DNA of 64,000 nucleotides. It comes from Paenibacillus sp. FSL H7-0357 (lineage in GTDB: Bacteria > Bacillota > Bacilli > Paenibacillales > Paenibacillaceae). Under the pieces are notes generated by a model. The model did no database searches and was not told the DNA's origin. It saw only the letters and a program-made list of their open reading frames with translations. Shown here piece by piece: positions 19,039 to 33,722 of this stretch (within the stretch, counting starts at the first letter, position 1; each line of letters begins with the position of its first letter). The translations under genes and the position numbers were made by a program. The stretch lies in assembly GCF_000758525.1 (NCBI RefSeq), contig NZ_CP009241.1, positions 3,162,001 to 3,226,000 of the forward strand. The letters run 5' to 3'.

Positions 19039-21318
19039 TCAAATGGTTTTGAAATACAAATGATACTGCTCATGGTTTAATTCTGCCAAAGGGGCAAATT
19101 CAAGCTGCGTCTCCTTGAAGACGAACCGGTTGGTACCAGTGATTCGTTCCATCTTCTCCTGTACATTTCCTTGGTGTAGGGGCAACTCATAAAAGTCTTT
19201 GCGGGTGGATACAGCCGCCAGAATAAAGGGACCAAAGGCGAGGGAGGCAGTGTCGTTCTTATCGGGAGTGAATTCCAACCGCAGCTCCGGCAAAAACCGA
19301 ATGGTTACCTTATCTTGCTTGCACCAGTCACAGGTTAAGGTGACATAACTGTTCTTTTCGGTAAAAGCAACCTGCTCACCATTGAGTTCAATCTTGACAT
19401 CTCCTTGATGCCAGTAAGGCTTGCGGATCTTTAAACGGGTTTTCTTCAAGGCCAGGATGGACAGCGTGATCTCTCCCGTAAAGATTTCAGGAACCATTTG
19501 CACCACATGCAGTCCATTGTCCGCATCCACCAGCTCAGATGAGACAAAGAGATTAACATATAAAGCGTCCGCATCCTCGAAGTAAACCGCTTCCGTATAT
19601 TTAAAATGGGCCTCCAAACCTGTACCGTGACAGCAGGAGTTCTCCTCGTCATAGCCCTTTTGCCCGCCGGGGCTGGTGGGCATAAAGTAGGTGCTTGCTC
19701 CCAGACATTCATGGTCGGTTGTCGCAAGAATATGATTCAACATGGTTCTTTCGTAATAATCCATATAAGACACATCATTTTCATATGCATATAGGTGTTT
19801 GGTGAGCTTTAACATGTTATAGGACGCACATGTTTCGGCGGTATGCTCCGTCAGATGGGCGCCGATCTTGTTAGGCTGCTTGAACATCTCACCCTCACCG
19901 GTTCCGCCGATCGAGTAAATATGGGAGTTTACAACCGACTGCCAGAAGAACTGGGCGATATCATAATACTTTTTTTCTTGCGTTGCCTCAAATATCTTGA
20001 TTGCTCCAACTACCTGGGGAATATGCTGATTGGCATGCAAGGCTCCCAGGGCATCTACTTTTTGCTCCATCGGGAAGAACAAGCGATCATTATCAAACAG
20101 CTTGGCCGCTTTAATATGATTTTCTTTGTCAGTATACGTATAGAGCTCAGCCAGTGACTCGTTGATCCCCCCAAACTCACCCGCAATGTACATGCTCCAC
20201 ATTTTGATTAATTGTTCATGCGACAGTGCACTCAAGCGGTTGTACACCCAGTCGCCGAGCTTGTCGGCAATGGTCAGCGCCAGTTGAATCCCGGCTTTAT
20301 GATAGCTGTCCAGCAAGCCGGCAAAAATCTTGTGCAGGGTGTAATAAGGTGCCCAGATTGCCGGATAGCGCACATATTTTTGCAGCAGATCAAATTGCTC
20401 CTCCGAATACGCGCTAATAAAGCCGAACTGGTATCTGTCATCTGCATCAAAGGCAAGTTGAACTTTATCTAATTCTTCAATCAGGTAAGTCAATTTACCG
20501 TAAATCTGCCCGTTGCCCGTTGAAGCATAGCACAGAGCAAGTGCCGACAGATAGTGTCCAGTCGTGTGTCCCTTCAGCAAGCTGTCGGGTGAATCCCAGC
20601 CGATCATCTCATCGGCCCCAAGGGTATCGATCCCAGCCGCCTTCCTGAAATTGTACAGCATCTGATCATCGTCAACCTTCAACAGAAAGGCCAGTCTCCG
20701 ATCCTGCGCAGTTTTGAATCTAGATGGCCCAAGCAGGCTGACCTTCTTCGGCGGAAAGGCATGCAGCAAGGCTTGTCTGACACTCTTCTTCTCGATGGTC
20801 TCCTTAACGATGACAGTCGCTGTTACCTCGTAAAGCGTGTCCGTCAGATGGCCAGCCGCTTTTTCCTCCCCGATCTCAGCATAAAGTCTTTCTGCTCCCC
20901 CAAGCCAATTGACCTGATGGCCAATGACATCGCCGGTTACAGTTTGAATAGACACAACAGAGGGCAGGCAAAATCTTGTATTCACTTGTTGCTGAATGTG
21001 TATGGGAAAGATTTTTCCAACCTGGGTTTTGTTTTTTTCCTCCAGAATGTTCACCTCAAAAACCTTAACCATCCTTGCCTCCCCGTACTGGAAAGTTGCG
21101 GTTAGCGGAACGATCCGGTCCCCTTTTCCATATTCAGGCTGATGCACTTTCCCAGAGCCGTCAATCCAACGGTCATCTTTTGAGGACCAGGTAATGGTGG
21201 AGCCATGCTTGCCCTCGGTCGGCAAAACAACATCAAACTCTACAGTTTTCAAATTCCCCAGATGCAAGGCCTCTATGTCTTGTTGGACCGTTTTTTGATC
21301 ACTGGATTTAACCGACAT
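19039..21318 (-). CDS. GH127 beta-L-arabinofuranosidase, cytosolic
   Basis: 759 residues from the ATG at 21318 (AAGGAGG seven bases upstream). It begins with two short Ig-like modules (about 1-200; ITWSSKDDRWIDGSGKV) not found in the minimal 660-residue enzymes. The catalytic barrel follows, with GHTTGHYLSALAL, the ETC motif in EHTAETCASYNMLKL and the CC pair in EENSCCHGTGLEAHF. In characterised GH127 (HypBA1) the Glu and three Cys bind zinc and one Cys is the nucleophile, so the active site is intact. No signal peptide: it would act on imported arabino-oligosaccharides. Divergent from an AraC regulator, with a cre-like box in the leader, so substrate induction and catabolite repression are expected. 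Confidence 0.88.
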   Translation of the reverse strand: MSVKSSDQKTVQQDIEALHLGNLKTVEFDVVLPTEGKHGSTITWSSKDDRWIDGSGKVHQPEYGKGDRIVPLTATFQYGEARMVKVFEVNILEEKNKTQVGKIFPIHIQQQVNTRFCLPSVVSIQTVTGDVIGHQVNWLGGAERLYAEIGEEKAAGHLTDTLYEVTATVIVKETIEKKSVRQALLHAFPPKKVSLLGPSRFKTAQDRRLAFLLKVDDDQMLYNFRKAAGIDTLGADEMIGWDSPDSLLKGHTTGHYLSALALCYASTGNGQIYGKLTYLIEELDKVQLAFDADDRYQFGFISAYSEEQFDLLQKYVRYPAIWAPYYTLHKIFAGLLDSYHKAGIQLALTIADKLGDWVYNRLSALSHEQLIKMWSMYIAGEFGGINESLAELYTYTDKENHIKAAKLFDNDRLFFPMEQKVDALGALHANQHIPQVVGAIKIFEATQEKKYYDIAQFFWQSVVNSHIYSIGGTGEGEMFKQPNKIGAHLTEHTAETCASYNMLKLTKHLYAYENDVSYMDYYERTMLNHILATTDHECLGASTYFMPTSPGGQKGYDEENSCCHGTGLEAHFKYTEAVYFEDADALYVNLFVSSELVDADNGLHVVQMVPEIFTGEITLSILALKKTRLKIRKPYWHQGDVKIELNGEQVAFTEKNSYVTLTCDWCKQDKVTIRFLPELRLEFTPDKNDTASLAFGPFILAAVSTRKDFYELPLHQGNVQEKMERITGTNRFVFKETQLEFAPLAELNHEQYHLYFKTI

Positions 21319-21336
21319 GTACTTTCCTCCTTGACA

Positions 21337-21350
21337 TTTAATCGCTTTCA
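21337..21350 (-). promoter_or_regulatory. cre box before the GH127 gene
   Basis: On the minus strand it reads TGAAAGCGATTAAA, one mismatch from TGWAANCGNTNWCA. It lies 18 bases upstream of the start codon, a roadblock-type position for CcpA. Confidence 0.6.
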
Positions 21351-21504
21351 CAGGATTAATGGTACAGGAAATAAAAATCAGTGTAAGTAGTTGAAAAAAA
21401 GAATAGGTGGATTATATTTACTACTATCGGGATGATTGCCGGGTTGAACTTGCCCGCTTATGGATTTCACGGAGCTATGTCTAATGCTGAGAGGAGTCAC
21501 AGTC

Positions 21505-22362
21505 ATGTATTTTGTTGATAAGAAATACACGGAGCATGCACAATTTTTGTCCGCAGGCACTTTCATCACCAATCAGCCCTGGATTCACACCGAACGGGTC
21601 ATTGACAGTTATGAAATCATCAGTCCCATCGAGTCTACGCTTTACATCGAGTGCAACAATATTCCCTACGCCATAGAATCGGGTGAGATCTTGGTCATTC
21701 CGCCGCATACTCGGCACAAGGGAATCAAATATTGTGAGGGTCGGATGAAATTCCACTGGCTTCATTTTTCATCGGTAAATCTGAGTATCCATACGGAGAC
21801 AGAGGTTATTCAGGAGCTCAATGTTAACAATGCCGATGACATGATTATCTTGCCCGTGCACACCAACAAAATCGACTCCAGGCGATTTCATGTCATGTTC
21901 AATCAACTGCTGGATTTATATCAGGAAAAGAAGCGGAATAATTACCTGAATGCTTATTTAAGCTGCCTTTTGCATGAATTGACCTCCGAAATCTTGAGTG
22001 TGCTGACCCGGAAAAATGTTAACGGCAACCGCCTGCAGCCGATCCAGGACTGGATTCGGATACATGCTTTTGATGACGTTACGATTGATAAAATTGCTGA
22101 TCATTTCAAATACAACAAAAGCTATCTGTCGAGAATTTACAAAGAGAATACCGGGATCGGAATCTCCGAGCAAATCATTACCTTTCGATTGAAGCATGCC
22201 AAAAAGTTGCTAACGGAAACAGATTTGAGCATTGTGCAAATTGCCTCGGAGGTGGGTTACGAGGATTCAAAATATTTCATGCGTTTGTTCAAAAAATATG
22301 AGAGCATCACTCCCACCCAATACAGGAAAACATTTTTTAACAAGCATTACAATAAAAAATGA
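21505..22362 (+). CDS. AraC-family regulator of the GH127 locus
   Basis: 285 residues from ATG 21505 (GAGAGGAG nine bases upstream; the frame is open from 21460). An N-terminal cupin-like sensor domain (ILVIPPHTRHKGIKYCEGRMKFHWLHF) is followed by two C-terminal helix-turn-helix motifs (VTIDKIADHFKYNKSYLSRIYKENTG and SIVQIASEVGYEDSKYFMRLFKKYESITPTQYRK). The divergent GH127 gene is the clear target; the inducer is probably arabinose or an arabinosyl sugar (inference). The coding sequence is AT-richer than the enzymes around it. Confidence 0.9.
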   Translation: MYFVDKKYTEHAQFLSAGTFITNQPWIHTERVIDSYEIISPIESTLYIECNNIPYAIESGEILVIPPHTRHKGIKYCEGRMKFHWLHFSSVNLSIHTETEVIQELNVNNADDMIILPVHTNKIDSRRFHVMFNQLLDLYQEKKRNNYLNAYLSCLLHELTSEILSVLTRKNVNGNRLQPIQDWIRIHAFDDVTIDKIADHFKYNKSYLSRIYKENTGIGISEQIITFRLKHAKKLLTETDLSIVQIASEVGYEDSKYFMRLFKKYESITPTQYRKTFFNKHYNKK

Positions 22363-22484
22363 AGAGAGCCATACTTGTGTTGCGTTGTCCACTTAACCTA
22401 TGGTTTGGGCTACCGTAGTGAAAAAGAAATCATGCTATCATTGAAAAGAAAGCGATACCATTTATTGTGAGGGGGGCATATGTA

Positions 22485-23543
22485 ATGGTGAATGGTGAAT
22501 TGCACATAGCGGCGGCCCAATTTATTGATCCGCACCGGATTGAATTGGTTTGGAATGATGGGGCGGAAGTTGCACAAGATCCAAATGCTTTTTTGGTTGA
22601 GCTAAACGGGGTGAATGTGCCCATTTACGCCAATGAGGATAAGGAGGCTTGGGATACTAGATGTGTGTATGAGGCGTCCAAGCGGCGAACAACGCTGTAC
22701 CTGCTGAATCCCATACAGCATAATGATTTGGGCAAGGTCAAGCTTACCGTTGTCGGGCAAAAAGGACAGGGCAGCGCAGTAACGGTCAACCAACCCTGTA
22801 TAATAAAAAAGTGGCAGAACTACTACACCAGATTTACCAGAACCTCTTCTGGAATTCTCATTAAATCCTCTTCACATGTCGGTTATCAGGTGCATGACCA
22901 AGCCTGTGCAATGATTGAGGTGATGTTGAGCAAAAGGCCGGAGGTAGCGCGGAAGCTGGAAGAGCTGCAAGCCTCTCTGGCTATTTACGGTTTGCAGGAG
23001 GACGCGTATGATATACCGGAGCATCGCGGCGGAGCGGACTTTTTAACCCGTCCTGTAGAAGGCTTCGGTGGAACGCCGCAAATTCCGACGACTTCTGTGT
23101 CAGAAAAAAACATCATGCGGTATAGAGATGGAGAGATTCAGACCCGATACCTCAATGAGTCCATCCTGGCCCATGAATTCGGGCATGCGATCCATTTAAT
23201 CGGGATCAATAATCTGGAGGATCAGACTTTAGCCAGACAACTGGTTAACGCCTATGAGCATGCCGTGGCCAGCGGACTTTGGCCGCATACCTACGCGATT
23301 TCCAATTACGAGGAGTATTTCGCCACATTAACGACAATCTGGTTTAATGTAATGGCCGAAAGCAAGGACGGCACCTGGGACGGGGTTAGAGGGCCAGTTA
23401 ATACTCGGGAAGAGCTAAAAGTCTATGATCCGCTGGGCTACTCCTTTTTCGACTCAATCTATCCTGACCGGGCATTCCCGGAACCCTGGAGCAGCACGTC
23501 CAATAAGTTTTCCGTTCAAGACCTGCTGCCTGCTGCGGAGTGA
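22485..23543 (+). CDS. Putative zinc metallopeptidase with HEFGHAIH motif
   Basis: 352 residues from ATG 22485, eight bases after GAGGGGGG. The N-terminal 110 residues look like an Ig-type strand domain (RIELVWNDGAEVAQDPNAFLVELNGV). The C-terminal half carries the zinc motif ESILAHEFGHAIHLIG and, about 45 residues on, YAISNYEEYFATL, where a Glu in the third-ligand position is typical of gluzincins such as the anthrax lethal-factor-like group. No signal peptide or membrane segment, so either cytosolic or exported by another route. It follows the AraC gene by 122 bases on the same strand. Family assignment beyond HExxH is uncertain. Confidence 0.65.
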   Translation: MVNGELHIAAAQFIDPHRIELVWNDGAEVAQDPNAFLVELNGVNVPIYANEDKEAWDTRCVYEASKRRTTLYLLNPIQHNDLGKVKLTVVGQKGQGSAVTVNQPCIIKKWQNYYTRFTRTSSGILIKSSSHVGYQVHDQACAMIEVMLSKRPEVARKLEELQASLAIYGLQEDAYDIPEHRGGADFLTRPVEGFGGTPQIPTTSVSEKNIMRYRDGEIQTRYLNESILAHEFGHAIHLIGINNLEDQTLARQLVNAYEHAVASGLWPHTYAISNYEEYFATLTTIWFNVMAESKDGTWDGVRGPVNTREELKVYDPLGYSFFDSIYPDRAFPEPWSSTSNKFSVQDLLPAAE

Positions 23544-23600
23544 AAACGAGCAAATATAGTTAAACAAAGCGGAAAATCCCAATTAAGTGAGCTGGTTAAA

Positions 23601-23961
23601 GTGCATGAGTTTGTAGTACGAGGGAAAAAGGGCTGTTTTGTACAAATCACCATAGAAGAGGCATTCGGTTTTCCGAACATGACAAGCCATTTTGGTGGAT
23701 ATGATGTCAGAGGAATTGTAGAAATTAAGAGTGGGAACTATTGCAGCATTGATAAATTCTGAAGTGAACCTAAAGCTAGAAGTTAAGTTTAACAAGCGAG
23801 GGCAGGTCATCATTGAAGGTTACTTCAAGGAGTTTGCACACGAGGGCAATGAGTTAATATTTGAAATCGAAAGCGATCAAAGCTTTTTTGTGGAGACGCT
23901 CGACGGATTGAAACAATTCGTTAACCACTATGGGGATATGAAAGGAATATGTCCTAAGTAG
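23601..23961 (+). pseudogene. WapI-like immunity gene, internally deleted and frameshifted
   Basis: A first frame (23601-23762) reads FVVRGKKGCFVQITIEEAF, then FPNMTSHFGGYDVRGIVEI, and stops. A second frame, overlapping from 23731, continues with NLKLEVKFNKRGQVIIEGYF, then FVETLDGLKQFVNHYGDMKG. Both halves together match my memory of the roughly 145-residue WapI-type immunity family of Bacillales, in which about 25-30 residues normally lie between them. So there has been an internal deletion with a phase change. Intact members protect against the WapA/contact-dependent toxin family. No toxin gene is nearby. A TAACGGG separator-like motif follows at once. Confidence 0.5.
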
Positions 23962-24103
23962 CCATTCTAACGGGCAGTTTTGTGGAACTTTATCGTGGGA
24001 TAGTTTAATTATGTTTGTTTTATCCTGGTCATATTGTCTATCCATCGTGGTATTATTGAATGCAATAAACAATATAATACTTCTGATGGGGCGTGATTTG
24101 AAT

Positions 24104-25570
24104 ATGAAGTCTCCCTTTAATCTGATGAATTTAAATATAGAAGAAGCAAGTATATATGAATTACAAAACGCGATGGAACAAGGTGAATTTACTTCAAAAG
24201 AATTAGTGTTTTGCTACTTATCACGTATCGCAAAATATGATCAGGATGGCCCTCACATAAATTCCATCATGGAAATTAACCCCGATGCCATTTTCATCGC
24301 AGAAGCACTTGATATAGAACGTCAGCGCAAGGGGAGTAGAGGACCTTTTCATGGCATACCGATTCTCGTTAAGGATAATATCGAAACCGGAGACAAGATG
24401 CGTACCAGTGCGGGAGCTTTAGCACTAGCACAGCATGTAAGTACGACGGACGCTTTCCTGATTCGCCGATTAAGAGAATCGGGGGCCATCATTTTGGGCA
24501 AGACGAATATGACAGAATGGGCCAACGGTATTTCCTCGACAATGTGGGCAGGTTATAGTTCAAAGGGGGGGCAGGTCGCGCACCCCTATGGTGATTTTTT
24601 CGTAGGCGGATCCAGTACGGGATCCGCAGCTGCGGTGGCCATGAGTTTTGCAGCAGCGGCGATAGGCACAGAAACCTCCGCTTCAATTCTGAGTCCGGCC
24701 ATACAGATGTCTATTGTCGGCATCAAACCGACCGTCGGCTTAATTAGCCGCTCAGGACTTATTCCTTTTTCTTATTCACAAGACACAGCAGGGCCGATGG
24801 CAAGGACGGTTTCAGATGCGGTAGTTCTGCTTAACGCATTAGCTGGGAGGGATGAGCACGACCCAGCAACCTGGCGTAATGACCATGTTATACAGGATTA
24901 CACATCATTCTTGGACAAGAATGGACTACAGGGAGCGAGAATTGGGGTCTTTTGTGAAGTACCAGATTCCCTGCGTGAATCTGGTGAATATAATCAGGAG
25001 CTATTTCATCAAGCAGTCTCCGAATTGATAAAAGCAGGAGCCGAAGTAGTAGAAAATATCGACATTCCATCGTTTCATGGTCCATGGCATTGGAACAAGA
25101 TGAATTTAGAATTCAATCATGGAGTGGAGAATTATTTGCAGCGTCTCCCGGCACATATGCCTGTTCATTCATTGTCCGAACTCATCAATTGGAATGAAAA
25201 GTATGCAGATGCAGCCCTGAAATACGGTCAAGATATATTAGAATTCCGGGAGGGGTTAACCAATCCTTTGAAAAATAAGGACTATATCATGGAATCTATT
25301 ATGGATTTATATCTAGCCCAGAACGAAGGAATTGATTATGCGATAAATAGTTATCAGTTAGATGCGATAATGTTTCCAGCTTATATTGGAGCGGATATAT
25401 GTGCCAAAGCTGGTTATCCATCTATTGCTATCCCCGCAGGGTATGGAGCAAACGGCAGACCATTTGGCATTACTTTTGCCGGAAAAGCATTTACTGAACC
25501 TACCTTAATTCGCATAGCTTATTCTTTTGAACAAATAACAAAACATCGCAAAAAACCTATATTCAACTAA
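24104..25570 (+). CDS. Amidase signature family enzyme
   Basis: 488 residues from ATG 24104, though the start is uncertain: the frame is open from 24011 and only a distant GGGG precedes 24104. The Ser-cisSer-Lys triad is visible: Lys in ILVKDNIETGD, Ser in GGSSTGSAAAVA and Ser in IGTETSASILSPA. The N-terminal ASIYELQNAMEQGEFTSKEL is typical of B. subtilis YerM-like amidases. It hydrolyses an unknown amide in the cytosol. Its last codons and stop (TTC AAC TAA) are part of a TTCAACTAA separator motif, so the C-terminus may have been trimmed or supplied by the cassette boundary. Codon use is AT-rich. Confidence 0.88.
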   Translation: MKSPFNLMNLNIEEASIYELQNAMEQGEFTSKELVFCYLSRIAKYDQDGPHINSIMEINPDAIFIAEALDIERQRKGSRGPFHGIPILVKDNIETGDKMRTSAGALALAQHVSTTDAFLIRRLRESGAIILGKTNMTEWANGISSTMWAGYSSKGGQVAHPYGDFFVGGSSTGSAAAVAMSFAAAAIGTETSASILSPAIQMSIVGIKPTVGLISRSGLIPFSYSQDTAGPMARTVSDAVVLLNALAGRDEHDPATWRNDHVIQDYTSFLDKNGLQGARIGVFCEVPDSLRESGEYNQELFHQAVSELIKAGAEVVENIDIPSFHGPWHWNKMNLEFNHGVENYLQRLPAHMPVHSLSELINWNEKYADAALKYGQDILEFREGLTNPLKNKDYIMESIMDLYLAQNEGIDYAINSYQLDAIMFPAYIGADICAKAGYPSIAIPAGYGANGRPFGITFAGKAFTEPTLIRIAYSFEQITKHRKKPIFN

Positions 25571-25589
25571 AGGGGAACTATGTAGGCAG
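25562..25589 (+). repeat. Cassette separator, copy 1
   Basis: TTCAACTAAAGGGGAACTAT, then GTAGGCAG. The TAA inside it is the amidase stop codon. The right half is degenerate. Confidence 0.45.
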
Positions 25590-25623
25590 CTTCCCATTTT
25601 CTTATCTTACGGTAGAAGATTAA

Positions 25624-25718
25624 ACAAACGAGAAACACTAGCTCAAGCATGCTGGCAGATTAAAACCTCCCTTTAGAAGCAAATCTAGATGGAATAGCTT
25701 CTAAGGGGAGGTTTTGTA
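25624..25718 (+). repeat. Separator half plus hairpin leader, copy A
   Basis: A right-half separator (AAACGAGAAACACTAGCTCA) runs into a long hairpin. Arm one is AAAACCTCCCTTTAGAAGC (25662-25680), arm two GCTTCTAAGGGGAGGTTTT (25697-25715), with a single G-T wobble. The same sequence recurs 1800 bases downstream. In this copy the ATG after the hairpin leads into ATG CTA TTC AAC TAG, so the gene once behind it has been lost. Confidence 0.7.
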
Positions 25719-25720
25719 TG

Positions 25721-25748
25721 CTATTCAACTAGAGAGCAGTTTAGCAGG
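25721..25748 (+). repeat. Cassette separator, copy 2
   Basis: CTATTCAACTAGAGAGCAGT, matching CTATTCAACTAAAGAGCAGT at 29164. This looks like the right boundary of the lost recombinase segment. Confidence 0.45.
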
Positions 25749-25754
25749 GTGAAC

Positions 25755-25794
25755 GATATGATCCTCTGTTAAAAAAATAGAGGATTTTCATATC
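25755..25794 (+). other. Hairpin in the 25571-25977 intergenic stretch
   Basis: GATATG-ATCCTCT (25755-25767) pairs with AGAGGAT and CATATC (25779-25785, 25789-25794). It may be a terminator for the broken leader. The rest of this 407-base stretch holds only the separator and hairpin copies listed separately. Confidence 0.45.
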
Positions 25795-25977
25795 ACTCCG
25801 CCGAAATTTGAAATGTACTTTTTGTTAGATATAGTGGTGTGAACCGTAGCATAGATGACAGATTTCGCTACATTTGATCTGCGAATCGGGCATATAATTC
25901 CAGGGAAATGTGGTGGAAGATGCGGGGCAAGCGTTCAACACCATGATAGAAGTGAAATCTATCTAGGAGGACTTCAA

Positions 25978-26370
25978 ATGAGCTATGATTTGATGGTTTT
26001 CGAGCCGTCCAGGGCACCGAGGGAAAGAAAGGAGTTTATGGATTGGTTTGAGCAGCAAGTACAATGGTCGGAAAATCATGAATATAATGATCCTTTTGTC
26101 TGCTCAGAGTCGTTGCACCGCTTGTACAGTAAGCTATCGGAGGATTTTCCCAATATGAATGTAGATGATGAAATTTTTGAAGCTATGGAGGAAGCCGGAA
26201 CTGAAAACCGGTTAACCGAGTACTCGCTGGGCTCCGCCGTCATCTATGCGGCTTTCGCTTATTCCGTAGCTAAGGAAGCATATACTACGATGCGGAATTT
26301 GGCTATAAAACACAAGGTAGGATTTTTTGATGTTAGCAGCAACGACGGCGAAATCTTTTTCCCTGATTGA
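25978..26370 (+). CDS. Small conserved protein, MSYDLMVF type, possibly immunity
   Basis: 130 residues from ATG 25978, with AGGAGG six bases upstream. The start MSYDLMVFEPSRAPRERKEF and the end MRNLAIKHKVGFFDVSSND define a widespread small cytosolic family I recognise by pattern but not by name. Members appear singly in accessory regions of many bacteria, often among immunity-type genes. No membrane segment or catalytic motif is evident. It sits in the cassette-like island between separators. A protective (immunity) role is inference from context only. Confidence 0.6.
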   Translation: MSYDLMVFEPSRAPRERKEFMDWFEQQVQWSENHEYNDPFVCSESLHRLYSKLSEDFPNMNVDDEIFEAMEEAGTENRLTEYSLGSAVIYAAFAYSVAKEAYTTMRNLAIKHKVGFFDVSSNDGEIFFPD

Positions 26371-26489
26371 TAATGCCACTTCGATAGTTTTCCATACCTC
26401 CCCCAAGTTAGTTGAAAACGCGGACGGAAATACGGTATTAATCGTAAATTTCTTTAGAAAACAAAAGACAATTAGTAACATATTCATTA

Positions 26490-26515
26490 TTCAACTAACG
26501 GGTAGGATAGTTCAG
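26490..26515 (+). repeat. Cassette separator, copy 3
   Basis: TTCAACTAACGGGTAGGATA, then GTTCAG. AACTA and TAGTT arms are kept. Confidence 0.55.
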
Positions 26516-26532
26516 AAAAGGCGTGAACAGTA

Positions 26533-26793
26533 ATGGAAAGTGTAATTAAGGAAATCATATCCCCAAGCGGGGTCTATAAAGCGCAGATAATTAAACGCTC
26601 TAAGGATGGTTTATTTACATCACAGGTCTTCAAATGGATTGAACATGATGAAGAAATAAGCGAGATAATAGGGGAGAAGGGCTTTTGGGGAGTTCTCTAC
26701 TCTACAAATTCATTAACAGATACAGTGGAAAGCTGTATGAAAGTTACTATCGAGAATTTAACTAATGCTTCAGCAGAGAAGATTATTATATAA
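26533..26793 (+). CDS. Hypothetical 86-residue protein
   Basis: ATG follows GGCGTG by a few bases. 86 residues with strand-rich, mixed-charge sequence (IISPSGVYKAQIIKRSKDGL, FKWIEHDEEISEIIGEKG), no membrane segment and no motif I know. Its size and style resemble orphan immunity or YkuS-like small proteins. The stop TAA is directly followed by the best-preserved separator. It begins 17 bases after the previous separator, so separators bracket it on both sides and the gene and one separator form a unit of roughly 290 bases. Confidence 0.55.
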   Translation: MESVIKEIISPSGVYKAQIIKRSKDGLFTSQVFKWIEHDEEISEIIGEKGFWGVLYSTNSLTDTVESCMKVTIENLTNASAEKIII

Positions 26794-26825
26794 CGTTCAA
26801 CTAACGGAAACGTTAGTTCAATGAA
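26794..26825 (+). repeat. Cassette separator, best copy (4)
   Basis: AACTAACG-GAAA-CGTTAGTT (26799-26818) is a perfect 8-bp stem with a GAAA tetraloop, flanked by CGTTC on the left and CAATGAA on the right. It starts one base after the stop codon of the preceding gene. Confidence 0.7.
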
Positions 26826-26946
26826 AAAAACGACAGTTAGTTTAATGATTTCGCGAATACTTCAACTATGTAGAATATGCGAAGTTTGCAGATTAGCTGT
26901 TAGGCGAATCTTTTGAAAGCATATATTAAAACATGGGAGGAAAAAA

Positions 26947-27431
26947 TTGATTAAATTCATCTCATCAGTTTTATTTGTTAAAGATATAGCAGTTTCACGG
27001 ATGTTTTATGAAGAGATTTTAGACCAACAAGTAGAGATAGACTATGGTGTCAATATCGGATACCTTGGTGGCTTTTCAATATGGAGGAAGGACGTAGCAC
27101 ATCAAAACATATTTAGAGATAACAAGGCTGAAATCGAATTAATAGGTAGCGGGAAGCAGCAAATTGAACTGTATTTTGAAGTGGAATACATAGATGAGAT
27201 CTACAAAAAACTTAAAGATCATCAGATTGAATTCGTTCATGACATATTTGAACAACCTTGGGGACAAAGAGTAGTTAGAGTATATGACCAGATAAATATA
27301 TTATTGAATTAGGCGAACCGATGAATGTGGTAATCAAGAGATATTATGAGACTGGTATGACATTGGAAGAGGTAGCAGAGAGGTCTTTAACACCAATTAG
27401 TATTGTAAGAAGCGTAATTAATAACAAATAA
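26947..27431 (+). pseudogene. VOC/glyoxalase-family gene with a one-base frameshift
   Basis: The first frame from TTG 26947 (GGGAGG upstream) gives a clean VOC domain, FISSVLFVKDIAVSRMFYEE through PWGQRVVRVYDQ, then runs to a stop after 121 residues. Adding one C in the CC at 27288-27289 restores YDPDKYIIELGEPM, the expected end of a VOC domain including the metal-ligand Glu. It also restores a further 45 codons (VIKRYYETGMTLEEVAERSL) ending at 27431. So the ancestral protein was about 160 residues and has lost one base. The truncated product lacks the last strand and ligand and is probably inactive. Sequencing error is the alternative. Confidence 0.75.
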
Positions 27432-27433
27432 TT

Positions 27434-27517
27434 AGCACTAGCTCAAGCAGGTTAGAAGATTAAAACCTCCCTTTAGAAGCAAACCTAGATGTAATAGCTT
27501 CTAAGGGGAGGTTTTCT
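27434..27517 (+). repeat. Separator half plus hairpin leader, copy B
   Basis: CACTAGCTCAAGCA (27436-27449), then the hairpin arms at 27462-27480 and 27497-27515, close to 90 percent identical to copy A exactly 1800 bases upstream. The GGGGAGG in the second arm is the ribosome binding site of the recombinase remnant that starts at 27519, so the stem would hide it. Confidence 0.7.
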
Positions 27518-27518
27518 T

Positions 27519-27668
27519 ATGAAGTTAAGTGAGTTGTGGCATCTATATGAGGCTGATATTCCTAAGTTTTTAATCGAGGAAGATGTTATTCACCTTAAGA
27601 TCTCGTGTCACTTGTTAAGCGACAGGACTCGAGATATCTTTTTTATAACAGTTTTATACCAATCGTAA
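27519..27668 (+). pseudogene. Recombinase N-terminal remnant 1
   Basis: A 49-codon frame starting MKLSELWHLYEAD, the beginning of a Paenibacillus-type tyrosine recombinase as I remember it (normally continuing KRIxGFSxxTLKAY). After residue 13 the sequence is unrelated and the frame soon ends, so most of the gene is deleted. GGGGAGG of the preceding hairpin gives a proper ribosome binding site. A second remnant of the same gene begins at 28986. Confidence 0.5.
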
Positions 27669-27727
27669 AGTATTACTAGTAGTATACTATTGGATGTGTT
27701 TCCCATTATTGAAGGGAGTGGTGTGGT

Positions 27728-27801
27728 ATGAAGAATATCGTTGCTGTCGTGGTTGTTACGGAGGAAGTTCAATTATAATCACAGAGGAATTCCTCTGTGA
27801 T
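27728..27801 (+). other. 17-codon frame and perfect 24-bp palindrome
   Basis: A tiny frame (MKNIVAVVVVTEEVQL) with GAAGGGAG upstream ends at 27778, where a perfect palindrome begins: ATCACAGAGGAA (27778-27789) against TTCCTCTGTGAT (27790-27801). It could be an operator or a hairpin upstream of the GNAT gene. The peptide may be a leader or chance. Confidence 0.35.
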
Positions 27802-27824
27802 ATCAAAATTTTGGAGGGATTCAT

Positions 27825-28271
27825 GTGGTTATTGAATTAAAGCCGGTATCAATTGAGAACTGGTACGATTGTACCAAGTTAAATGTAAAGCAAGAACAAA
27901 CTAGTGTTTTTCCAGCTCCTGTTGTTTATTGGATTGCAGAATCTAAATTTCTTCATGATTTTGATTTGCGCGCAATATATTCAGAGGCGTTGCTAGTCGG
28001 ATTTATTGTCTTTTGTAAAACCCCCGACGAAGACGGTAACCATTGGATACCTGCACTCATGATTGATGAGAATCATCAAGGGAATGGTTTTGGCAAAAAA
28101 GCAATGAAAAAATTAATTGATCTTATGAGTCAAAATGGTTGTAATAGATTAATGATCGGGCACAGACCCGACAACTTGATTGCTGGGAACCTGTATGAAT
28201 CCTTGGGATTTCAGAGGGCTAGCGAAGAAATAATTGACGGTGAAATTATTCGTTTTCTACAACTTAATTAA
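27825..28271 (+). CDS. GNAT acetyltransferase, polyamine (BltD/PaiA)-like
   Basis: 148 residues from GTG 27825, with GGAGG eight bases upstream. The N-terminus (LKPVSIENWYDCTKLNVKQE, then YWIAESKF) matches the spermidine/spermine acetyltransferase branch. The acetyl-CoA loop is NHQGNGFGKKAMKKLI, and NLYESLGFQ closes the fold. Polyamine acetylation lowers toxicity of excess spermidine; the substrate is inferred from the N-terminal pattern. It is an intact member of the cassette-like island and is followed by a hairpin and a separator. AT-rich coding. Confidence 0.85.
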   Translation: MVIELKPVSIENWYDCTKLNVKQEQTSVFPAPVVYWIAESKFLHDFDLRAIYSEALLVGFIVFCKTPDEDGNHWIPALMIDENHQGNGFGKKAMKKLIDLMSQNGCNRLMIGHRPDNLIAGNLYESLGFQRASEEIIDGEIIRFLQLN

Positions 28272-28292
28272 AGGATCCCCTTAGTAAATAAA

Positions 28293-28355
28293 TATGGCTG
28301 TCAGTAAATTACTGGCAGCGGTCGTTCAACTAATAAGAAACGTTAGCTCAATAAA
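28293..28355 (+). repeat. Hairpin and cassette separator, copy 5
   Basis: GCTGTCAGT and ACTGGCAGC pair across a short loop at about 28295-28318. Then CGTTCAACTAATAAGAAACG and TTAGCTCAATAAA (28323-28355). The hairpin may end the GNAT transcript. Confidence 0.55.
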
Positions 28356-28414
28356 TGCCATGAGTATATTAGAAATGGATTTAAGAGCGGTATGTGATGT
28401 GTGGAGGATTTTTA

Positions 28415-28963
28415 ATGACGCAATTTTATCTCATTCGCCATGGTGAACCTCTATGGGACATAAATGAACATTACAAATTAAAGGGACATGGCCGGGACAT
28501 GGTTCCTCTTACGAATAAAGGGGTTAACCAAGTATATTTGACAGCAAAGGACGAACGTTTAAAAGAAGCTGAAATTGTTGTCTCTTCTCCTTACCCAAGA
28601 GCACTTCAAACGGCCGCTATTTTATCAAAGGAACTTGGTTTAGAAATAATGGTTGAATTCGATTTAAGGGAATGGCAACCTGACTTAACATTTGAATATG
28701 ATTCATTGGAGAAGCTTAAAGAACTGGGGGATGATTATGATGCTAATCATGGAGTCTATCCTCCTGGGGTAACCAAGCTTTGGGAGTCTAAAGAACTACT
28801 GAAGAACCGCATGGAGAAGGTGATTAACAAATATCTCGAATTTCAAAAGGTGATAATTACTGGACACGGCATGGCTTTTCGTACCTTGGTAGGAGAGGTA
28901 GGCGAGATTCCACATGCTTCAATTATCGAGTATTATAAACAAAGCCATGTCACTTTACGCTAA
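28415..28963 (+). CDS. Histidine phosphatase family protein
   Basis: 182 residues from ATG 28415, with GGAGG seven bases upstream; an earlier ATG pair at 28394 lies before that site. Catalytic RHG in FYLIRHGEPLWD, SSPYPRALQTA and the second His in IITGHGMAF are intact. This branch is distinct from the RHF-type protein at 11611. The stop codon (CGC TAA CGG) falls inside a CTAACGGG separator, so the last residue is set by the boundary. Substrate unknown. Part of the cassette-like island. Confidence 0.82.
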   Translation: MTQFYLIRHGEPLWDINEHYKLKGHGRDMVPLTNKGVNQVYLTAKDERLKEAEIVVSSPYPRALQTAAILSKELGLEIMVEFDLREWQPDLTFEYDSLEKLKELGDDYDANHGVYPPGVTKLWESKELLKNRMEKVINKYLEFQKVIITGHGMAFRTLVGEVGEIPHASIIEYYKQSHVTLR

Positions 28964-28985
28964 CGGGAGACGATAGTTCAAGCAG
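28960..28985 (+). repeat. Cassette separator, copy 6
   Basis: CTAACGGGAGACGATAGTTC, then AAGCAG. It supplies the stop codon of the phosphatase and joins directly to recombinase remnant 2. Confidence 0.6.
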
Positions 28986-29080
28986 TAAAGGTAAGTGAGT
29001 TATGGCATCTGTATAAGGCTGATAAACGAATTCAAGGATGCTGGGCCATGAGAAAGCCTCAACCACGCAGATATACGCAC
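28986..29080 (+). pseudogene. Recombinase N-terminal remnant 2
   Basis: Reads VKVSELWHLYKADKRIQG, the same N-terminus as remnant 1 with five more recombinase-like residues, then unrelated sequence. The hairpin leader and ATG present at 27434-27521 are missing here: the separator is fused straight to the second codon region, so it cannot be translated normally. The end point is approximate. Confidence 0.5.
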
Positions 29081-29163
29081 AACACCGTGGCGAACGCAGG
29101 AGAGAAATGTACCAGTGATCCCTTTAGCACATTATAGCGGTAGATCCCTTTTAGAAATTTGCC

Positions 29164-29186
29164 GCTATTCAACTAAAGAGCAGTAT
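29164..29186 (+). repeat. Cassette separator, copy 7
   Basis: CTATTCAACTAAAGAGCAGT, nearly identical to 25721. Lies 19 bases before the next gene. Confidence 0.5.
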
Positions 29187-29204
29187 GTGAAGGGAGAATG
29201 ATTA

Positions 29205-29465
29205 ATGAAGGGGCGAGTTTATGTAGAGTATAGGCGTTTAGGATTTTTTGCTGTAGAGACCGAAGACAATGATTTCTCCATAATTGAGGTTGGGAGTGGA
29301 ATCCCTTCCTTAGGAGACGAATTGATTGGGGGGCTTAATTCACTTGGTGAAAAGCAACTATACAATGAGACAACTAAAGAAGAATTAGATGTATCTATTA
29401 AATCTATACAATTAACCCTAGCCGAAGCGAAGAGCTATATTAAAGATGCTGCAAGAGGGAAATAG
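29205..29465 (+). CDS. Hypothetical 86-residue protein
   Basis: ATG with GGGAG about nine bases upstream. The sequence GRVYVEYRRLGFFAVETEDNDFSIIEVG suggests a small beta-barrel; the second half is helical. No domain recognised beyond a vague similarity to small Bacillus proteins. It is the last unit of the cassette-like island, followed by a separator and a terminator. Function unknown; an immunity or antitoxin role would fit the context but has no direct support. Confidence 0.6.
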   Translation: MKGRVYVEYRRLGFFAVETEDNDFSIIEVGSGIPSLGDELIGGLNSLGEKQLYNETTKEELDVSIKSIQLTLAEAKSYIKDAARGK

Positions 29466-29473
29466 TTAGACGA

Positions 29474-29500
29474 TTTAACGGGATACGATAGCTTAATAAA
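29474..29500 (+). repeat. Cassette separator, copy 8
   Basis: TTTAACGGGATACGATAGCT, then TAATAAA, directly before the terminator that closes the island. Confidence 0.55.
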
Positions 29501-29551
29501 CCAGCGGGAGTTCAGGATTTTATTTTCCAGAACAAGACTTCCGCTGGTTTT
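29499..29551 (+). terminator. Terminator closing the island
   Basis: AACCAGCGGGAGT (29499-29511) pairs with ACTTCCGCTGGTT (29537-29549) with one mismatch, followed by T residues. Confidence 0.7.
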
Positions 29552-29598
29552 ATATGGGAGTCAGTCTAATACTTCGAACATGTATATGGAAAATATAT

Positions 29599-29640
29599 AG
29601 GAGGTCCGGCAAACCATTTCATTGGTTTACCGGACCTCCT
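29599..29640 (-). terminator. Terminator of the alpha-galactosidase operon
   Basis: 18-base arms at 29599-29616 and 29623-29640 (AGGAGGTCCGG / CCGGACCTCCT at the base) with one mismatch. Lies just past the stop of the minus-strand GH36 gene. Confidence 0.7.
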
Positions 29641-29661
29641 TATTGCAGATGCGGGTTGCTA

Positions 29662-31884
29662 CTAGTCTGCCTCCAAAATAAAAATGCGAGACAGAAAATC
29701 GCCTCTTGGCACCTTGGAATGGTAATCGCCAGATGTATGGTCATTTAAAACAATACCGATCTCCATCAATTCATCCCCAAAATAGCCGTGTTCGCCTAAA
29801 TGGGCGATGCGATATTTTTTATGAGGGTCCAGTCCGGCAAGCTTCAATCGCCGATAGCCGTCGTTTACCTTCGTAAGAATGCGGTAATAGCCGACGATCG
29901 CCCGGCTTCTGTCTCTGGATCGGACCATCCATGCTGTTTCATTACCCTGGAAGGGACTGGCCAGCCGATAAAACGTCCCCCGCGCCATGAGACCACGGTA
30001 CTTTTTCATAAAGGTGATTTGTTCCTGAACGGTTGCTTTTTCTTCATCAGACAGCAGGCTGATATCGAGCTCATAGCCAAAGGTGCCAAAATAGGCGACA
30101 CTGCCTCGGGTATTCAGGGAAACGCTGCGGGATGTCTGGTGATTGGGTACCGCGGAAACATGGGACCCCATGCTGCTGAGCGGGTATACCATGGAGGTGC
30201 CGTATTGTATTTTTAACCGTTCGACGGCGTCTGTATTATCGGAAATCCATCCCTGCGGCGAGTAATACAGCATCCCCGGATCAAATCGTCCACCTCCGCT
30301 GGCGCATGACTCGAATAAGACCTCAGGAAATTTACTGGTTAACCGTTCGTGCAATTCATATATCCCCAGGATGTATTGATGGTAAACCCTTCCTTGAAAA
30401 TCACATTCCCTTCCTTGGGAAAACACTTCTGACATAGAGCGGTTCATATCCCATTTCACATAGGAGATATCAGAGCCGGCTAACAGATGGCTGAGGGTCT
30501 GATCCAAGTAATCAATGACCTCGGCCTTCGTCAAGTCCAGGACATATTGATTTCGACCCGGACTCACCGTACGGTAGGGGACGGATAATAACCAGTCCGG
30601 GTGCTTCTCATAAAGTTTGCTTGCTTTGCTGATCATTTCCGGTTCAAACCAAAGGCCGAATTTCAGCCCCATTGCAGTAATCTTAGAGGCAAGGCCGGAG
30701 ATGCCGTTGGGCAGCTTGACCTTGTTGGGGTACCAGTCCCCGAGAGAGGTTGTGTCTGTATTACGTTCGCCAAACCAGCCGTCATCCAGAACAAACAATT
30801 CGATTCCAAGCCCGGTGGCCGCGCGGGCAAGTCCAAGTATTTTGTCCTCATCAAAATTCATGTAGGTGGCTTCCCAGTTATTGATTAGGATGGGGCGCTC
30901 TCTGTCCCTCCAGAAGCCTCGGACCAACCGTGTTTGATACAGCTCGTGGAACACTTGGCTCATCCTGTTCAAGCCTTTATCAGAATACACCAACACGGAC
31001 TCCGGCGTTTGAAAGCTATCTCCGGGTTCCAAAACCCAACTGAAGCCATGCGGATGTATGCCCATCATTATACGGGTTACATCATACGTATCTACTTCAG
31101 CCTGAGCCAAAAAATTGCCGCTGTACACTAAACTGAATCCGATTGCTTCGCCGAGAAACTCCGTAGTTTCCTTTCGCTTCAACCCGATGAAGGGGTTATA
31201 GTTGTGGCTGCTGTGCCCCCGCAGACTGTATATGCTTTGAATACCCTGGTGCAGAGGAACATTCTGAATATGCCGCTCCCTCCCCCAAGCACCGGTTAAG
31301 GTCAACATTTCATACTCCTTATCCGGAAGCTCCAGGCTGAAGCTCATAGCGGCTTCAAGGCGGATTTTCTCTGTGCCTGAATGGATTATTTTCATAGATC
31401 GGGTTAATACAGGTAACTGGTTGAAGAGAGTATATTGCAGTTCAACCTGACAGGAGAGAGTCTTGTCGATTAAACAAATACACACGGTATCGGCCTCATT
31501 GTCCTCTTCGACATACGTTGCGGGCAGGCCTTCAAGTGAAGGTTTGCCCGGGAGGATATGATGACTTAAATACTCAAAATGAGTGGTGCTGCTGCCATCC
31601 TGCTGGACCACATGAAGCCCGCAGCTTCTTAAATCGCCTGCACCATAAACCGAAACTTCCTGTTTGACCTGCTCCAGGGAAAACTTGGGATTTCCTTCAA
31701 AAACGCAGGGAGACATATCGCGAAACCCCCATTCCAGCAGGTGGGAGAAATCCTCCTGGTCCTGAATCCTTTTGCCGTAATACAAATGGCCAAGCTGCTG
31801 ATTCAGCATGACGCAAAAGATGTAACTGATATCATCATTGTACAAGTGAAATTGCTTGGTTTTTTCATGGTAGATCACAGGCAT
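29662..31884 (-). CDS. GH36 alpha-galactosidase
   Basis: 740 residues from the ATG at 31884, with AAAGGAG upstream; the frame is open to 31932. It has the length and layout of the tetrameric Firmicutes GH36 enzymes (AgaA of Geobacillus, about 730): N-terminal beta-sandwich, barrel and C-terminal sheet domain. The nucleophile Asp is at about 479 in YVKWDMNRSMSE and the acid/base Asp at about 549 in ISDNTDAVERL, next to ESCASGGGRFD. FVLDDGWFGERN is also typical. No signal peptide: it hydrolyses imported raffinose, melibiose or galacto-oligosaccharides. The transporter gene lies 57 bases upstream and is probably in the same transcript. Confidence 0.95.
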   Translation of the reverse strand: MPVIYHEKTKQFHLYNDDISYIFCVMLNQQLGHLYYGKRIQDQEDFSHLLEWGFRDMSPCVFEGNPKFSLEQVKQEVSVYGAGDLRSCGLHVVQQDGSSTTHFEYLSHHILPGKPSLEGLPATYVEEDNEADTVCICLIDKTLSCQVELQYTLFNQLPVLTRSMKIIHSGTEKIRLEAAMSFSLELPDKEYEMLTLTGAWGRERHIQNVPLHQGIQSIYSLRGHSSHNYNPFIGLKRKETTEFLGEAIGFSLVYSGNFLAQAEVDTYDVTRIMMGIHPHGFSWVLEPGDSFQTPESVLVYSDKGLNRMSQVFHELYQTRLVRGFWRDRERPILINNWEATYMNFDEDKILGLARAATGLGIELFVLDDGWFGERNTDTTSLGDWYPNKVKLPNGISGLASKITAMGLKFGLWFEPEMISKASKLYEKHPDWLLSVPYRTVSPGRNQYVLDLTKAEVIDYLDQTLSHLLAGSDISYVKWDMNRSMSEVFSQGRECDFQGRVYHQYILGIYELHERLTSKFPEVLFESCASGGGRFDPGMLYYSPQGWISDNTDAVERLKIQYGTSMVYPLSSMGSHVSAVPNHQTSRSVSLNTRGSVAYFGTFGYELDISLLSDEEKATVQEQITFMKKYRGLMARGTFYRLASPFQGNETAWMVRSRDRSRAIVGYYRILTKVNDGYRRLKLAGLDPHKKYRIAHLGEHGYFGDELMEIGIVLNDHTSGDYHSKVPRGDFLSRIFILEAD

Positions 31885-31941
31885 GGGGAAAACTCCTTTC
31901 AAAAAAGTGCTGACAATTGAAATTGTCAACACTGGGGTTTA

Positions 31942-33456: not shown

Positions 33457-33482
33457 GGTTCTTCCTTCTTTCTGCGTATTTC

Positions 33483-33496
33483 TGAGAACGCTTTCC
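33483..33496 (-). promoter_or_regulatory. cre-like box before the POT/GH36 operon
   Basis: TGAGAACGCTTTCC on the plus strand differs from TGWNANCGNTNWCA at one position. It lies between the start codon (33456) and an AT-rich -10-like stretch, so CcpA could block transcription. Confidence 0.55.
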
Positions 33497-33635
33497 CTTT
33501 TAAAATATAGCAGATTCATTTCTGTAAAACGGTAGCGGATAGTTGGGATAGGTGGACATTTATTACCTATCGCGGAGGTATCCGTTTCTCCCGCATAATC
33601 GATGACTTCGATGAACGCACCAAGGCCGTCTCTAC

Positions 33636-33679
33636 AAAAAAAGGATGCACCCGAGCTGTCGCTTGACGGGGCATCCTTT
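33636..33679 (-). terminator. Terminator of the 33.7 kb oxidoreductase
   Basis: AAAGGATGC (33640-33648) and GCATCCTTT (33671-33679). The A-run from 33636 gives a U-run on the minus strand. Confidence 0.75.
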
Positions 33680-33722
33680 GCATTTAAATAGCGGTACTAT
33701 TCATTCGGAAAGAATACAAATG

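What the first reader, a model, noticed from the sequence alone, without database searches (positions are those of the whole stretch)
23545..29500. Cassette-like array of one-way genes with stem-loop separators in a Firmicute
Seen: nine unrelated small genes or remnants, all on the + strand, punctuated by at least eight variants of one short motif (TTCAACTAACGGG..ACGATAGTTCAA; best stem AACTAACG-GAAA-CGTTAGTT). Separators sit at or inside stop codons (amidase TAA at 25568, 86-residue protein stop at 26793, phosphatase TAA at 28961). Recombinase remnants lie inside the array. Known: integron cassettes share one-way genes with a structured recombination site each, but these motifs do not fit attC and no IntI is present. 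Inference: a different cassette-capture system driven by a tyrosine recombinase, now decaying.
Basis: partly seen in the sequence, partly recalled or inferred. Interest (0 to 1): 0.8.

Follow-up and report, generated by a model that had tools for sequence, protein, structure and literature searches.

The report
Integron-like gene cassette arrays in Paenibacillus
The window holds a decaying piece of a gene-capture system that resembles integrons but appears to use a different recombinase and a different recombination site, and the same system, in better shape, is found in many Paenibacillus genomes and on some Bacillus-type plasmids.

Summary
Window 23545-29580 is a one-way array inserted into a Paenibacillus chromosome: in a relative (G017, 91-92% DNA identity) the flanks are joined with 4 bp between. 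The separators are ~27-bp palindromic cores. They are sparse here but 62 of 100 genomes of the genus carry the pattern, in arrays pointing one way (412 of 416 sites in 93 multi-site loci). There are two types: A (CTAACGGGANACGWTAG) at gene ends and C (CTAACGGGCAG|N) before genes; 155 of 420 A cores have a C core 40-110 bp downstream with a hairpin between, an attC-like layout. Near-identical genes recur between different neighbours, and the change falls inside the A and C cores, so genes move as cassettes. The remnants belong to a 280-aa Xer-like tyrosine recombinase, intact elsewhere, often preceded by an A core (44 of 78) and followed by an attI-like core (33 of 58). It lacks the IntI-specific segment and scores far below the IntI cut-off. 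Relatives at ~50% identity lie on Bacillaceae and Planococcaceae plasmids with analogous sites. Best reading: an undescribed integron-like cassette system of Bacillales, degenerate here. Catalysis is untested.

The parts
23545..29580 (+). whole insertion (cassette array) between a 358-aa gene without Pfam family and an alpha-galactosidase (melibiase) gene
   Evidence: G017 aligns at 91-92% to window 20002-23544 and 29581-33699 with 4 bp between; G055 also lacks it; flanking genes
23545..23570 (+). left junction, degenerate core site (AAACGAGCAAATATAGTTAAA), read by eye
   Evidence: comparison with the empty locus in G017
23585..23961 (+). cassette gene: WapI-like immunity protein, broken
   Evidence: PF24716 match; 75-79% DNA identity to two stretches of L113
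23962..23977 (+). C-type core (CCATTCTAACGGGCAG)
24011..25570 (+). cassette gene: amidase
   Evidence: PF01425; 65-67% DNA identity to L050 and L207
25562..25588 (+). degenerate A-type core overlapping the amidase stop codon
   Evidence: matrix score 6.4
25620..25740 (+). recombinase unit remnant 1: A-type core 25620-25646, leader hairpin to 25717, attI-like core 25724-25739; coding sequence lost
25978..26370 (+). cassette gene: 130-aa ORF, no family found
26490..26505 (+). C-type core (TTCAACTAACGGGTAG)
   Evidence: the left edge of a block 98.4% identical to L098 lies in it
26533..26793 (+). cassette gene: 86-aa ORF
   Evidence: block 26504-26816 is 98.4% identical to G046 (L098) with different flanks
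26796..26821 (+). A-type core (TTCAACTAACGGAAACGTTAGTTCAA)
   Evidence: the right edge of the shared block lies in it
26947..27312 (+). cassette gene: glyoxalase-like
   Evidence: PF12681; block 26844-27440 is 91% identical to G096 (L106)
27436..27625 (+). recombinase unit remnant 2: leader, first codons, then an internal fragment
   Evidence: up to 98% identity to the leader and start of recombinase units in L101 and L091
27825..28271 (+). cassette gene: GNAT acetyltransferase
   Evidence: PF00583; 27623-28333 is 95% identical to G035 (L050)
28325..28351 (+). A-type core
   Evidence: score 26.0
28394..28963 (+). cassette gene: histidine phosphatase
   Evidence: PF00300
28955..28981 (+). A-type core containing the phosphatase stop codon; best copy in the window
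   Evidence: score 40.0; 3 mismatches to the seed
28985..29183 (+). recombinase unit remnant 3: start fused to the C-terminal end, hairpin, attI-like core 29168-29183
29205..29465 (+). cassette gene: second 86-aa ORF
   Evidence: 29186-29529 is 82.5% identical to G083 (L090), where an A core also follows
29470..29496 (+). A-type core
   Evidence: score 15.9
29497..29580 (+). terminal hairpin module and degenerate right junction
   Evidence: 29476-29574 is 80-82% identical to stretches of L106 and L055; 75-78% to L180 and L051; junction

Best explanation
The array is a degenerate member of an integron-like gene-capture system of Bacillales. Shown by comparison: (1) genes lie head to tail in one direction, typically starting after a C core and ending at an A core; (2) near-identical genes recur between different neighbours, and the change falls inside the cores; (3) between an A core and the next C core often lies a ~70-bp hairpin module, or a ~1-kb unit that codes for a Xer-like tyrosine recombinase and often ends in an attI-like core; (4) the host locus is empty in a close relative. 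Inferred: the recombinase binds the two inverted 11-bp arms of each core as double-stranded DNA, exchanges strands across the 5-bp spacer, and so excises and inserts cassettes in one orientation, with recombinase units moving like cassettes. In the window all three recombinase units are broken, so this array can no longer move by itself.
For: Site real and clustered: 196 copies in 809 kb of selected loci, none in one shuffled control; 62 of 100 same-genus genomes at 2 mismatches, reversed-pattern controls 0 in all 100. One-way: 412 of 416 sites in 93 non-duplicate loci with two or more; 224 of 226 sites follow the recombinase gene's direction in 80 named loci; longest ORF in 230 C-to-A blocks: 212 +, 15 -, 3 without one of 50 aa. 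Cassette exchange: 45 A-site pairs (23 gene clusters, gene 3' ends 78-99% identical, IS-ended pairs removed), same downstream module in 2 pairs; 45 C-site pairs (20 clusters), same upstream module in 4. Position profile of the pairs with different modules: at A cores positions 1-5 go with the gene and 13-15 are at background; at C cores positions 3-5 are at background and 17 onward go with the gene; the positions between hardly vary. Window block 26504-26816 is 98.4% identical to G046 with both flanks different and edges in both cores. Empty locus. Recombinase: A core 70-130 bp upstream in 44 of 78 loci; attI-like or C core within 110 bp after the stop in 33 of 58 full-length genes against 143 of 2000 random stretches of the same loci; R138, K162, H229, R232, H255, Y264 at the catalytic places of XerD. 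Similar layout on Bacillaceae plasmids.
Against: No experiment links this recombinase to these sites. Many arrays are irregular: 265 of 420 A cores lack a C core 40-110 bp downstream and 259 of 414 C cores lack an A core that far upstream; 66 A-A and 73 C-C intervals of 300-2000 bp. No A core 70-130 bp upstream in 34 of 78 recombinase loci, no attI-like core after 25 of 58 full-length genes, many of them in the more distant copies. Of the same 100 genomes 62 have the site and 35 the recombinase start, 11 of 51 matches with a full open frame, so many arrays, this one included, lack a working recombinase in cis. Only one of the shared window blocks has both edges in cores; the G083 match runs on through the A core into the hairpin, and edges of the G096, G035 and L113 matches lie partly elsewhere. 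A crude end-to-end test gave 8 pairs (2 of them duplicates), 6 differing on the left but 1 on the right, the rest scored same or too short. Spacer positions 14-15 vary, unusual for recombinases that need spacer identity. On the four plasmids looked at, sites of one type occur in both directions.
Confidence: 0.75

Rival explanations
1. A true integron: IntI acts on single-stranded folded attC sites made of A core, hairpin and C core, and the gene plus its attC is the mobile cassette.
For: Two simple sites with CTAAC/GTTAG-like boxes around a hairpin, mostly 55-75 bp apart in Paenibacillus and 62-64 bp apart on Bacillaceae plasmids; a single attI-like core after many recombinase genes; hairpin modules fold well (median z -3.4 against mononucleotide shuffles, 155 modules).
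Against: The recombinase scores 87.8 bits against the IntI cut-off of 265 and has no match to the stretch between IntI profile positions 181 and about 240. Genes rarely keep their downstream module (2 of 45 pairs), so exchange happens in the A core too. Variable arm positions do not covary as pairs.
Confidence: 0.12
2. The hairpin modules are MITE-like elements of a tyrosine-recombinase transposon (the recombinase unit being the autonomous copy) that insert next to genes; the genes between them are passengers.
For: Hairpin modules and the recombinase unit share the same inverted ends (CGWTAGYTSAA ... TTSAACTAACG).
Against: The gene-side halves of A and C cores travel with the gene even when the neighbouring module differs, so gene blocks have ends of their own; one window gene block is shared without either neighbouring module; sites of an array point one way.
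Confidence: 0.1
3. Repetitive terminator/REP-like elements between genes, with ordinary homologous recombination shuffling the genes.
For: Hairpins resemble terminators; cores are repeated.
Against: Sparse in this 7.7-Mb genome (4 copies at 3 mismatches); the change falls inside cores under 30 bp; orientation; empty locus; a recombinase associated with the arrays.
Confidence: 0.03

Closest known systems
Integrons (IntI / attI / attC)
   Same: One-way arrays of unrelated small genes; composite separator of two simple sites around a hairpin; attI-like core beside many of the recombinase genes; separator families that differ between Paenibacillus and Peribacillus; IS110 and apparent group II intron insertions at or next to separators.
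   Different: Recombinase is Xer-like without the IntI-specific segment; exchange in both cores; genes not tied to their separator; no sign of arms conserved by pairing; recombinase usually in the direction of the array and itself part of an array unit.
dif (pdif) modules of Acinetobacter plasmids
   Same: Genes bounded by short sites of two arms and a spacer; two module types alternate; shuffling across strains (PMC13141974, passages incl. parts of the abstract).
   Different: pdif sites on either side of a module are inversely oriented and use the host XerC/XerD; here sites are directly oriented and a recombinase unit of its own travels in the arrays.
XerC/XerD/XerA tyrosine recombinases
   Same: Fold family and catalytic residues.
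   Different: 30% identity or less to the host's own full-length tyrosine recombinases; several copies or remnants in some genomes, within cassette arrays; below the XerC, XerD and XerA family cut-offs.

Membership tests
Integron | IntI with the IntI-specific additional domain | tested here: not met
   TIGR02249 87.8 bits against cut-off 265, in two stretches; profile positions 181 to about 240 unmatched where the query has about 20 residues. That IntI is defined by this domain: PMC9668308, passages read.
Integron | array of one-way gene cassettes | tested here: met
Integron | attC: two simple sites flanking a hairpin | tested here: met
   met in part: 155 of 420 A cores have a C core 40-110 bp downstream; those 155 modules have median fold z -3.4
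Integron | attC recognised as a folded single strand, arms conserved by pairing | tested here: inconclusive
   no complementary covariation at variable arm positions; conserved positions cannot be tested this way
Integron | gene and its attC move as one unit with crossover in one core only | tested here: not met
   exchange in both cores; downstream module shared in 2 of 45 pairs; the feature itself is recalled knowledge
Integron | attI next to the recombinase gene | tested here: inconclusive
   attI-like or C core within 110 bp after 33 of 58 full-length genes, 143 of 2000 random stretches; function not tested
dif (pdif) modules | modules bounded by inversely oriented sites for host XerC/XerD | tested here: not met
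   412 of 416 sites in the array's own direction; definition from PMC13141974
REP-like repeats | many copies dispersed over the genome | tested here: not met
   4 copies in 7.69 Mb at 3 mismatches; more degenerate copies exist (11 by matrix in four stretches), not searched genome-wide
Any of these | recombination demonstrated biochemically | not testable with these tools
   sequence evidence only

The most novel reading that the evidence does not exclude
Bacillales possess their own gene-capture system, an independently evolved counterpart of integrons: a Xer-derived recombinase that shuffles promiscuous genes between double-stranded ~27-bp cores, with genes, hairpin modules and the recombinase gene itself all behaving as exchangeable cassettes, on chromosomes of Paenibacillaceae and on large plasmids of Bacillaceae and Planococcaceae.
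Probability: 0.6. Interest if true: 0.93.

Novelty: new variant of a known kind. Interest (0 to 1): 0.86.

Why it matters
Integrons are the classic bacterial device for collecting genes and are very rarely found in Firmicutes (IntegronFinder 2.0, PMC9024848, passages read: the only complete one in Firmicutes was in Limnochorda pilosa, with a few integrase-less clusters in other genera). If Bacillales use a separate recombinase and site for the same job, gene capture in arrays has evolved more than once, a large hidden pool of cassette genes exists in soil Firmicutes, and searches built on IntI and attC would miss it. It also gives a test of whether integron behaviour needs single-stranded attC folding.

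Tried and rejected
Rejected: REP-like element; Rfam families (none in the window array at E 0.1, none at gathering score in L101, L092, L137); cassette-borne -10 promoter boxes after C cores (41 of 230 blocks against 49 of 230 shuffled); defence-gene cargo in the window (PADLOC, none for 6 proteins). My first crossover profile mixed two effects, because hairpin modules form families; I replaced it, which groups by the gene side only. In one search the pairs were chosen by homology of the gene flank and the same-module pairs were set aside for the position profile, so it locates the break but does not estimate how often breaks occur; counts of same and different are given. An end-to-end comparison gave 8 pairs, two of them duplicate records: 6 differ on the left, 1 on the right, the others 'same or too short' by a crude shared-word test that shared cores and hairpins can trip. 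I did not build a tree with IntI sequences: no IntI over the cut-off was found in the six genomes or the 14 controls searched.

Rows dropped: records that duplicate others (L107, L129, L136, L126) and short loci L001-L004; L026 in 44 and 79; L131 in 65 and 79; IS-ended pairs (59 pairs, 45). Searches kept duplicates (427 A, 420 C, 158 pairs, 447 of 451 sites); one search gives the counts without the duplicates. Loci were chosen because they held sites or the recombinase, so densities are not genome-wide rates. Of 188 related loci in genome contigs 80 were returned; all 80 were used, 64 of 80, and the 58 of those 64 with a frame of 275 aa or more. Of 2632 plasmid records with a recombinase match (all under 60% identity) I looked at four among the best.

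Literature: eight of the ten searches looked for such arrays in Paenibacillus, Bacillales or Firmicutes and listed no paper whose title or abstract describes them; fetched comparison papers. Passages of PMC4909258 and PMC11089894 proved unrelated. The library holds open-licence papers only, no preprints.

Full report
What is there. The window lies at 3162001-3226000 of a 7.69-Mb single-contig genome. The same genus holds genome G045, whose contig of 332,757 bases with an identical recombinase matches the named record of P. rhizophilus, so I take the host for a Paenibacillus. Between a 358-aa gene without Pfam family (ends 23543) and an alpha-galactosidase gene lie eight gene cassettes on the + strand, ten core sites, some degenerate, and three remnants of a recombinase unit. 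In G017 the two flanks (91-92% identical) are joined with 4 bp between, and G055 (71-75%) lacks the array too, so 23545-29580 is an insertion. The G017 junction reads GTGA-ATAGTTGAA, which looks like a core half-site; whether G017 is the ancestral state or has lost an array cannot be told from this.

The site. TTCAACTAACG with one mismatch is found 8 times against 0.72 expected. In this genome the 27-bp pattern has no copy at 2 mismatches and 4 at 3, the reversed control none; a matrix finds 11 A cores in the four stretches looked at. In the genus 62 of 100 genomes have the pattern at 2 mismatches with zero control hits; G035 has 33 copies and G047 14. A matrix from selected loci gives 196 copies in 809 kb and none in a shuffled control, with consensus RTTNARCTAACGGGANACGWTAGYTSAA: two inverted 11-bp arms around a 5-bp spacer. 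In 93 non-duplicate loci with two or more sites, 412 of 416 point the same way as the rest of their locus.

Two core types. Downstream of many A cores a second type occurs, TTNARCTAACGGGCAG followed by a weakly conserved right arm. Without duplicates, 155 of 420 A cores have one 40-110 bp downstream, with peaks at 55-60 and 65-75 bp and a hairpin between. These modules fold better than mononucleotide-shuffled sequence (155 modules, median z -3.4, 80% below -2). The layout is that of an attC site, but at the variable arm positions the two sides do not covary as base pairs, neither within the A core nor between A and C cores. The other 265 A cores and 259 of 414 C cores have no such partner.

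Genes move as cassettes. I compared sites whose adjoining gene ends are homologous. Of 45 A-site pairs in 23 gene clusters (ends 78-99% identical; IS-ended pairs removed), 2 pairs share the following module; 21 of 23 clusters show a change. Of 45 C-site pairs in 20 clusters with homologous downstream genes, 4 share the preceding module; 17 of 20 clusters show a change (details). Cluster-averaged identity per position shows where the change falls: in A cores positions 1-5 go with the gene and positions 13-15 are at background; in C cores positions 3-5 are at background and positions from 17 go with the gene (the flank used for choosing pairs begins at 17); the positions between hardly vary. In the window, block 26504-26816 is 98.4% identical to G046, its edges lie in the two cores, and the flanks differ on both sides. 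Other window cassettes recur in G096 (91%), G035 (95%), G083 (82.5%) and P. glycanilyticus (75-79%). Those four matches do not have both edges in cores: the G083 match runs through the A core into the hairpin, the G035 match ends with its contig, and the others have edges partly elsewhere.

The recombinase. The remnants match a 280-aa tyrosine recombinase whose N-terminus is found in 35 of 100 same-genus genomes; 11 of the 51 matches have an open frame of 280 aa or more without a stop, the rest are shorter or broken. At E 1e-60 it is found, whole or in part, in 43 of 295 genomes of the family, in 9 of 19 genera. A scan of named genomes found 188 related loci, 80 returned: Paenibacillus, Brevibacillus, Cohnella, strains named Bacillus and one Bacilli MAG. 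In those 80 loci 224 of 226 sites have the gene's orientation, and 44 of 78 with enough sequence have an A core 70-130 bp upstream. The typical unit is: A core, leader hairpin that covers the ribosome-binding site, gene, hairpin, attI-like core TTCAACTAAAGGGCAG. Such a core or a C core lies within 110 bp after the stop in 33 of 58 full-length genes, against 143 of 2000 random stretches of the same loci. A search for that core in all loci gave 339 matches along the arrays, 17 on the other strand and 8 in a shuffled control; 64 of the 339 have a recombinase C-terminus within 250 bp upstream, and many of the others are ordinary C cores. The protein aligns with XerD over the catalytic residues. 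It is below the XerC, XerD, XerA and IntI cut-offs and lacks the IntI-specific segment. This genome has no intact copy.

Beyond Paenibacillaceae. Relatives at about 50% identity lie on plasmids of Peribacillus, Sporosarcina, Cytobacillus and others. Four plasmids that I looked at carry two site types: 10, 5, 18 and 21 copies of CTAACGNGGCAGNTTAGTTNAA and 7, 4, 14 and 14 copies of TTNAACTAACGGGTGCTTTAG at 3 mismatches, with one reversed-control hit in all. Over the whole plasmid the first type occurs in both directions on all four and the second on two of four, so one-way order can hold only within stretches. On pSHB26 of Peribacillus simplex the 14 A-type sites between 2354 and 37229 are all on +; 7 of them have a C-type site 63-64 bp downstream by the pattern search, 6 with a near-identical hairpin, and 37 of 42 annotated genes in the first 40 kb are on +. 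An attI-like core lies about 31 bp after the recombinase stop there. On the Sporosarcina plasmid the recombinase points away from the array.

How it most likely works. The recombinase binds the arms of two cores, cuts at the edges of the spacer and exchanges strands; between directly repeated cores this excises a circle, and the reverse reaction inserts it in one orientation. That positions 14-15 of A cores follow the gene no more than chance is what spacer exchange followed by replication would give; one search suggests that they follow the other side no better. Shown: site, orientation, cassette edges, empty locus, association with the recombinase. Inferred: binding, cutting, double-stranded substrate, attI role. 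In the window the system is dead in cis, because all three units have lost most of the gene.

Compared with the known. It works like an integron, but two defining integron features were tested and not met (IntI-specific segment; gene and attC moving as one unit), so I do not file it as one. It shares alternating module types with Acinetobacter dif modules, but the sites are directly oriented and a recombinase unit of its own is present (PMC13141974). IntegronFinder 2.0 reports one complete integron in Firmicutes, in Limnochorda pilosa, and a few clusters without integrase (PMC9024848, passages). Eight literature searches listed no description of this system; the library holds open-licence papers only.

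Noticed in passing
L091 12674, L092 8193/11983/14233, L111 10267 (array-oriented coordinates): A shared ~150-bp end (...GCTGCATG) stops directly at A cores in these places; at L092 14233 an IS110 transposase gene precedes it, and L091 holds one too. IS elements that target attC are known as the IS1111-attC group (recalled).
   Followed up: partly
L234 11535 and 37209 (pSHB26): The same stretch, which looks like a group II intron start, interrupts the A-type core after GGGTGC in both places; an annotated ltrA gene follows the first.
   Followed up: no
L107 5935-6003 and 17 other leaders; window 25656-25717 and 27456-27518: The recombinase leader has a conserved hairpin that pairs with the ribosome-binding site and a conserved GCAAA-CTAG core; 2 of 10 pairs show compensatory change, the covariation term is small. 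It may control translation.
   Followed up: partly
window 26836-26880; L055 15783, L099 9122, L140 4883, L207 7503 (array-oriented): Similar 5' segments (GATTTCGCGAATAC...) follow C cores in several arrays; whether the genes behind them are the same was not checked.
   Followed up: no
L230 (Sporosarcina psychrophila pSP10-266k): The recombinase is on the opposite strand to the other 27 annotated genes of this 25-kb stretch, which include merA and merR.
   Followed up: no
L088 and L103 (genome G065): Two stretches of one genome share one whole cassette at 98.8% and the 3' end of another at 99%, in different surroundings.
   Followed up: no
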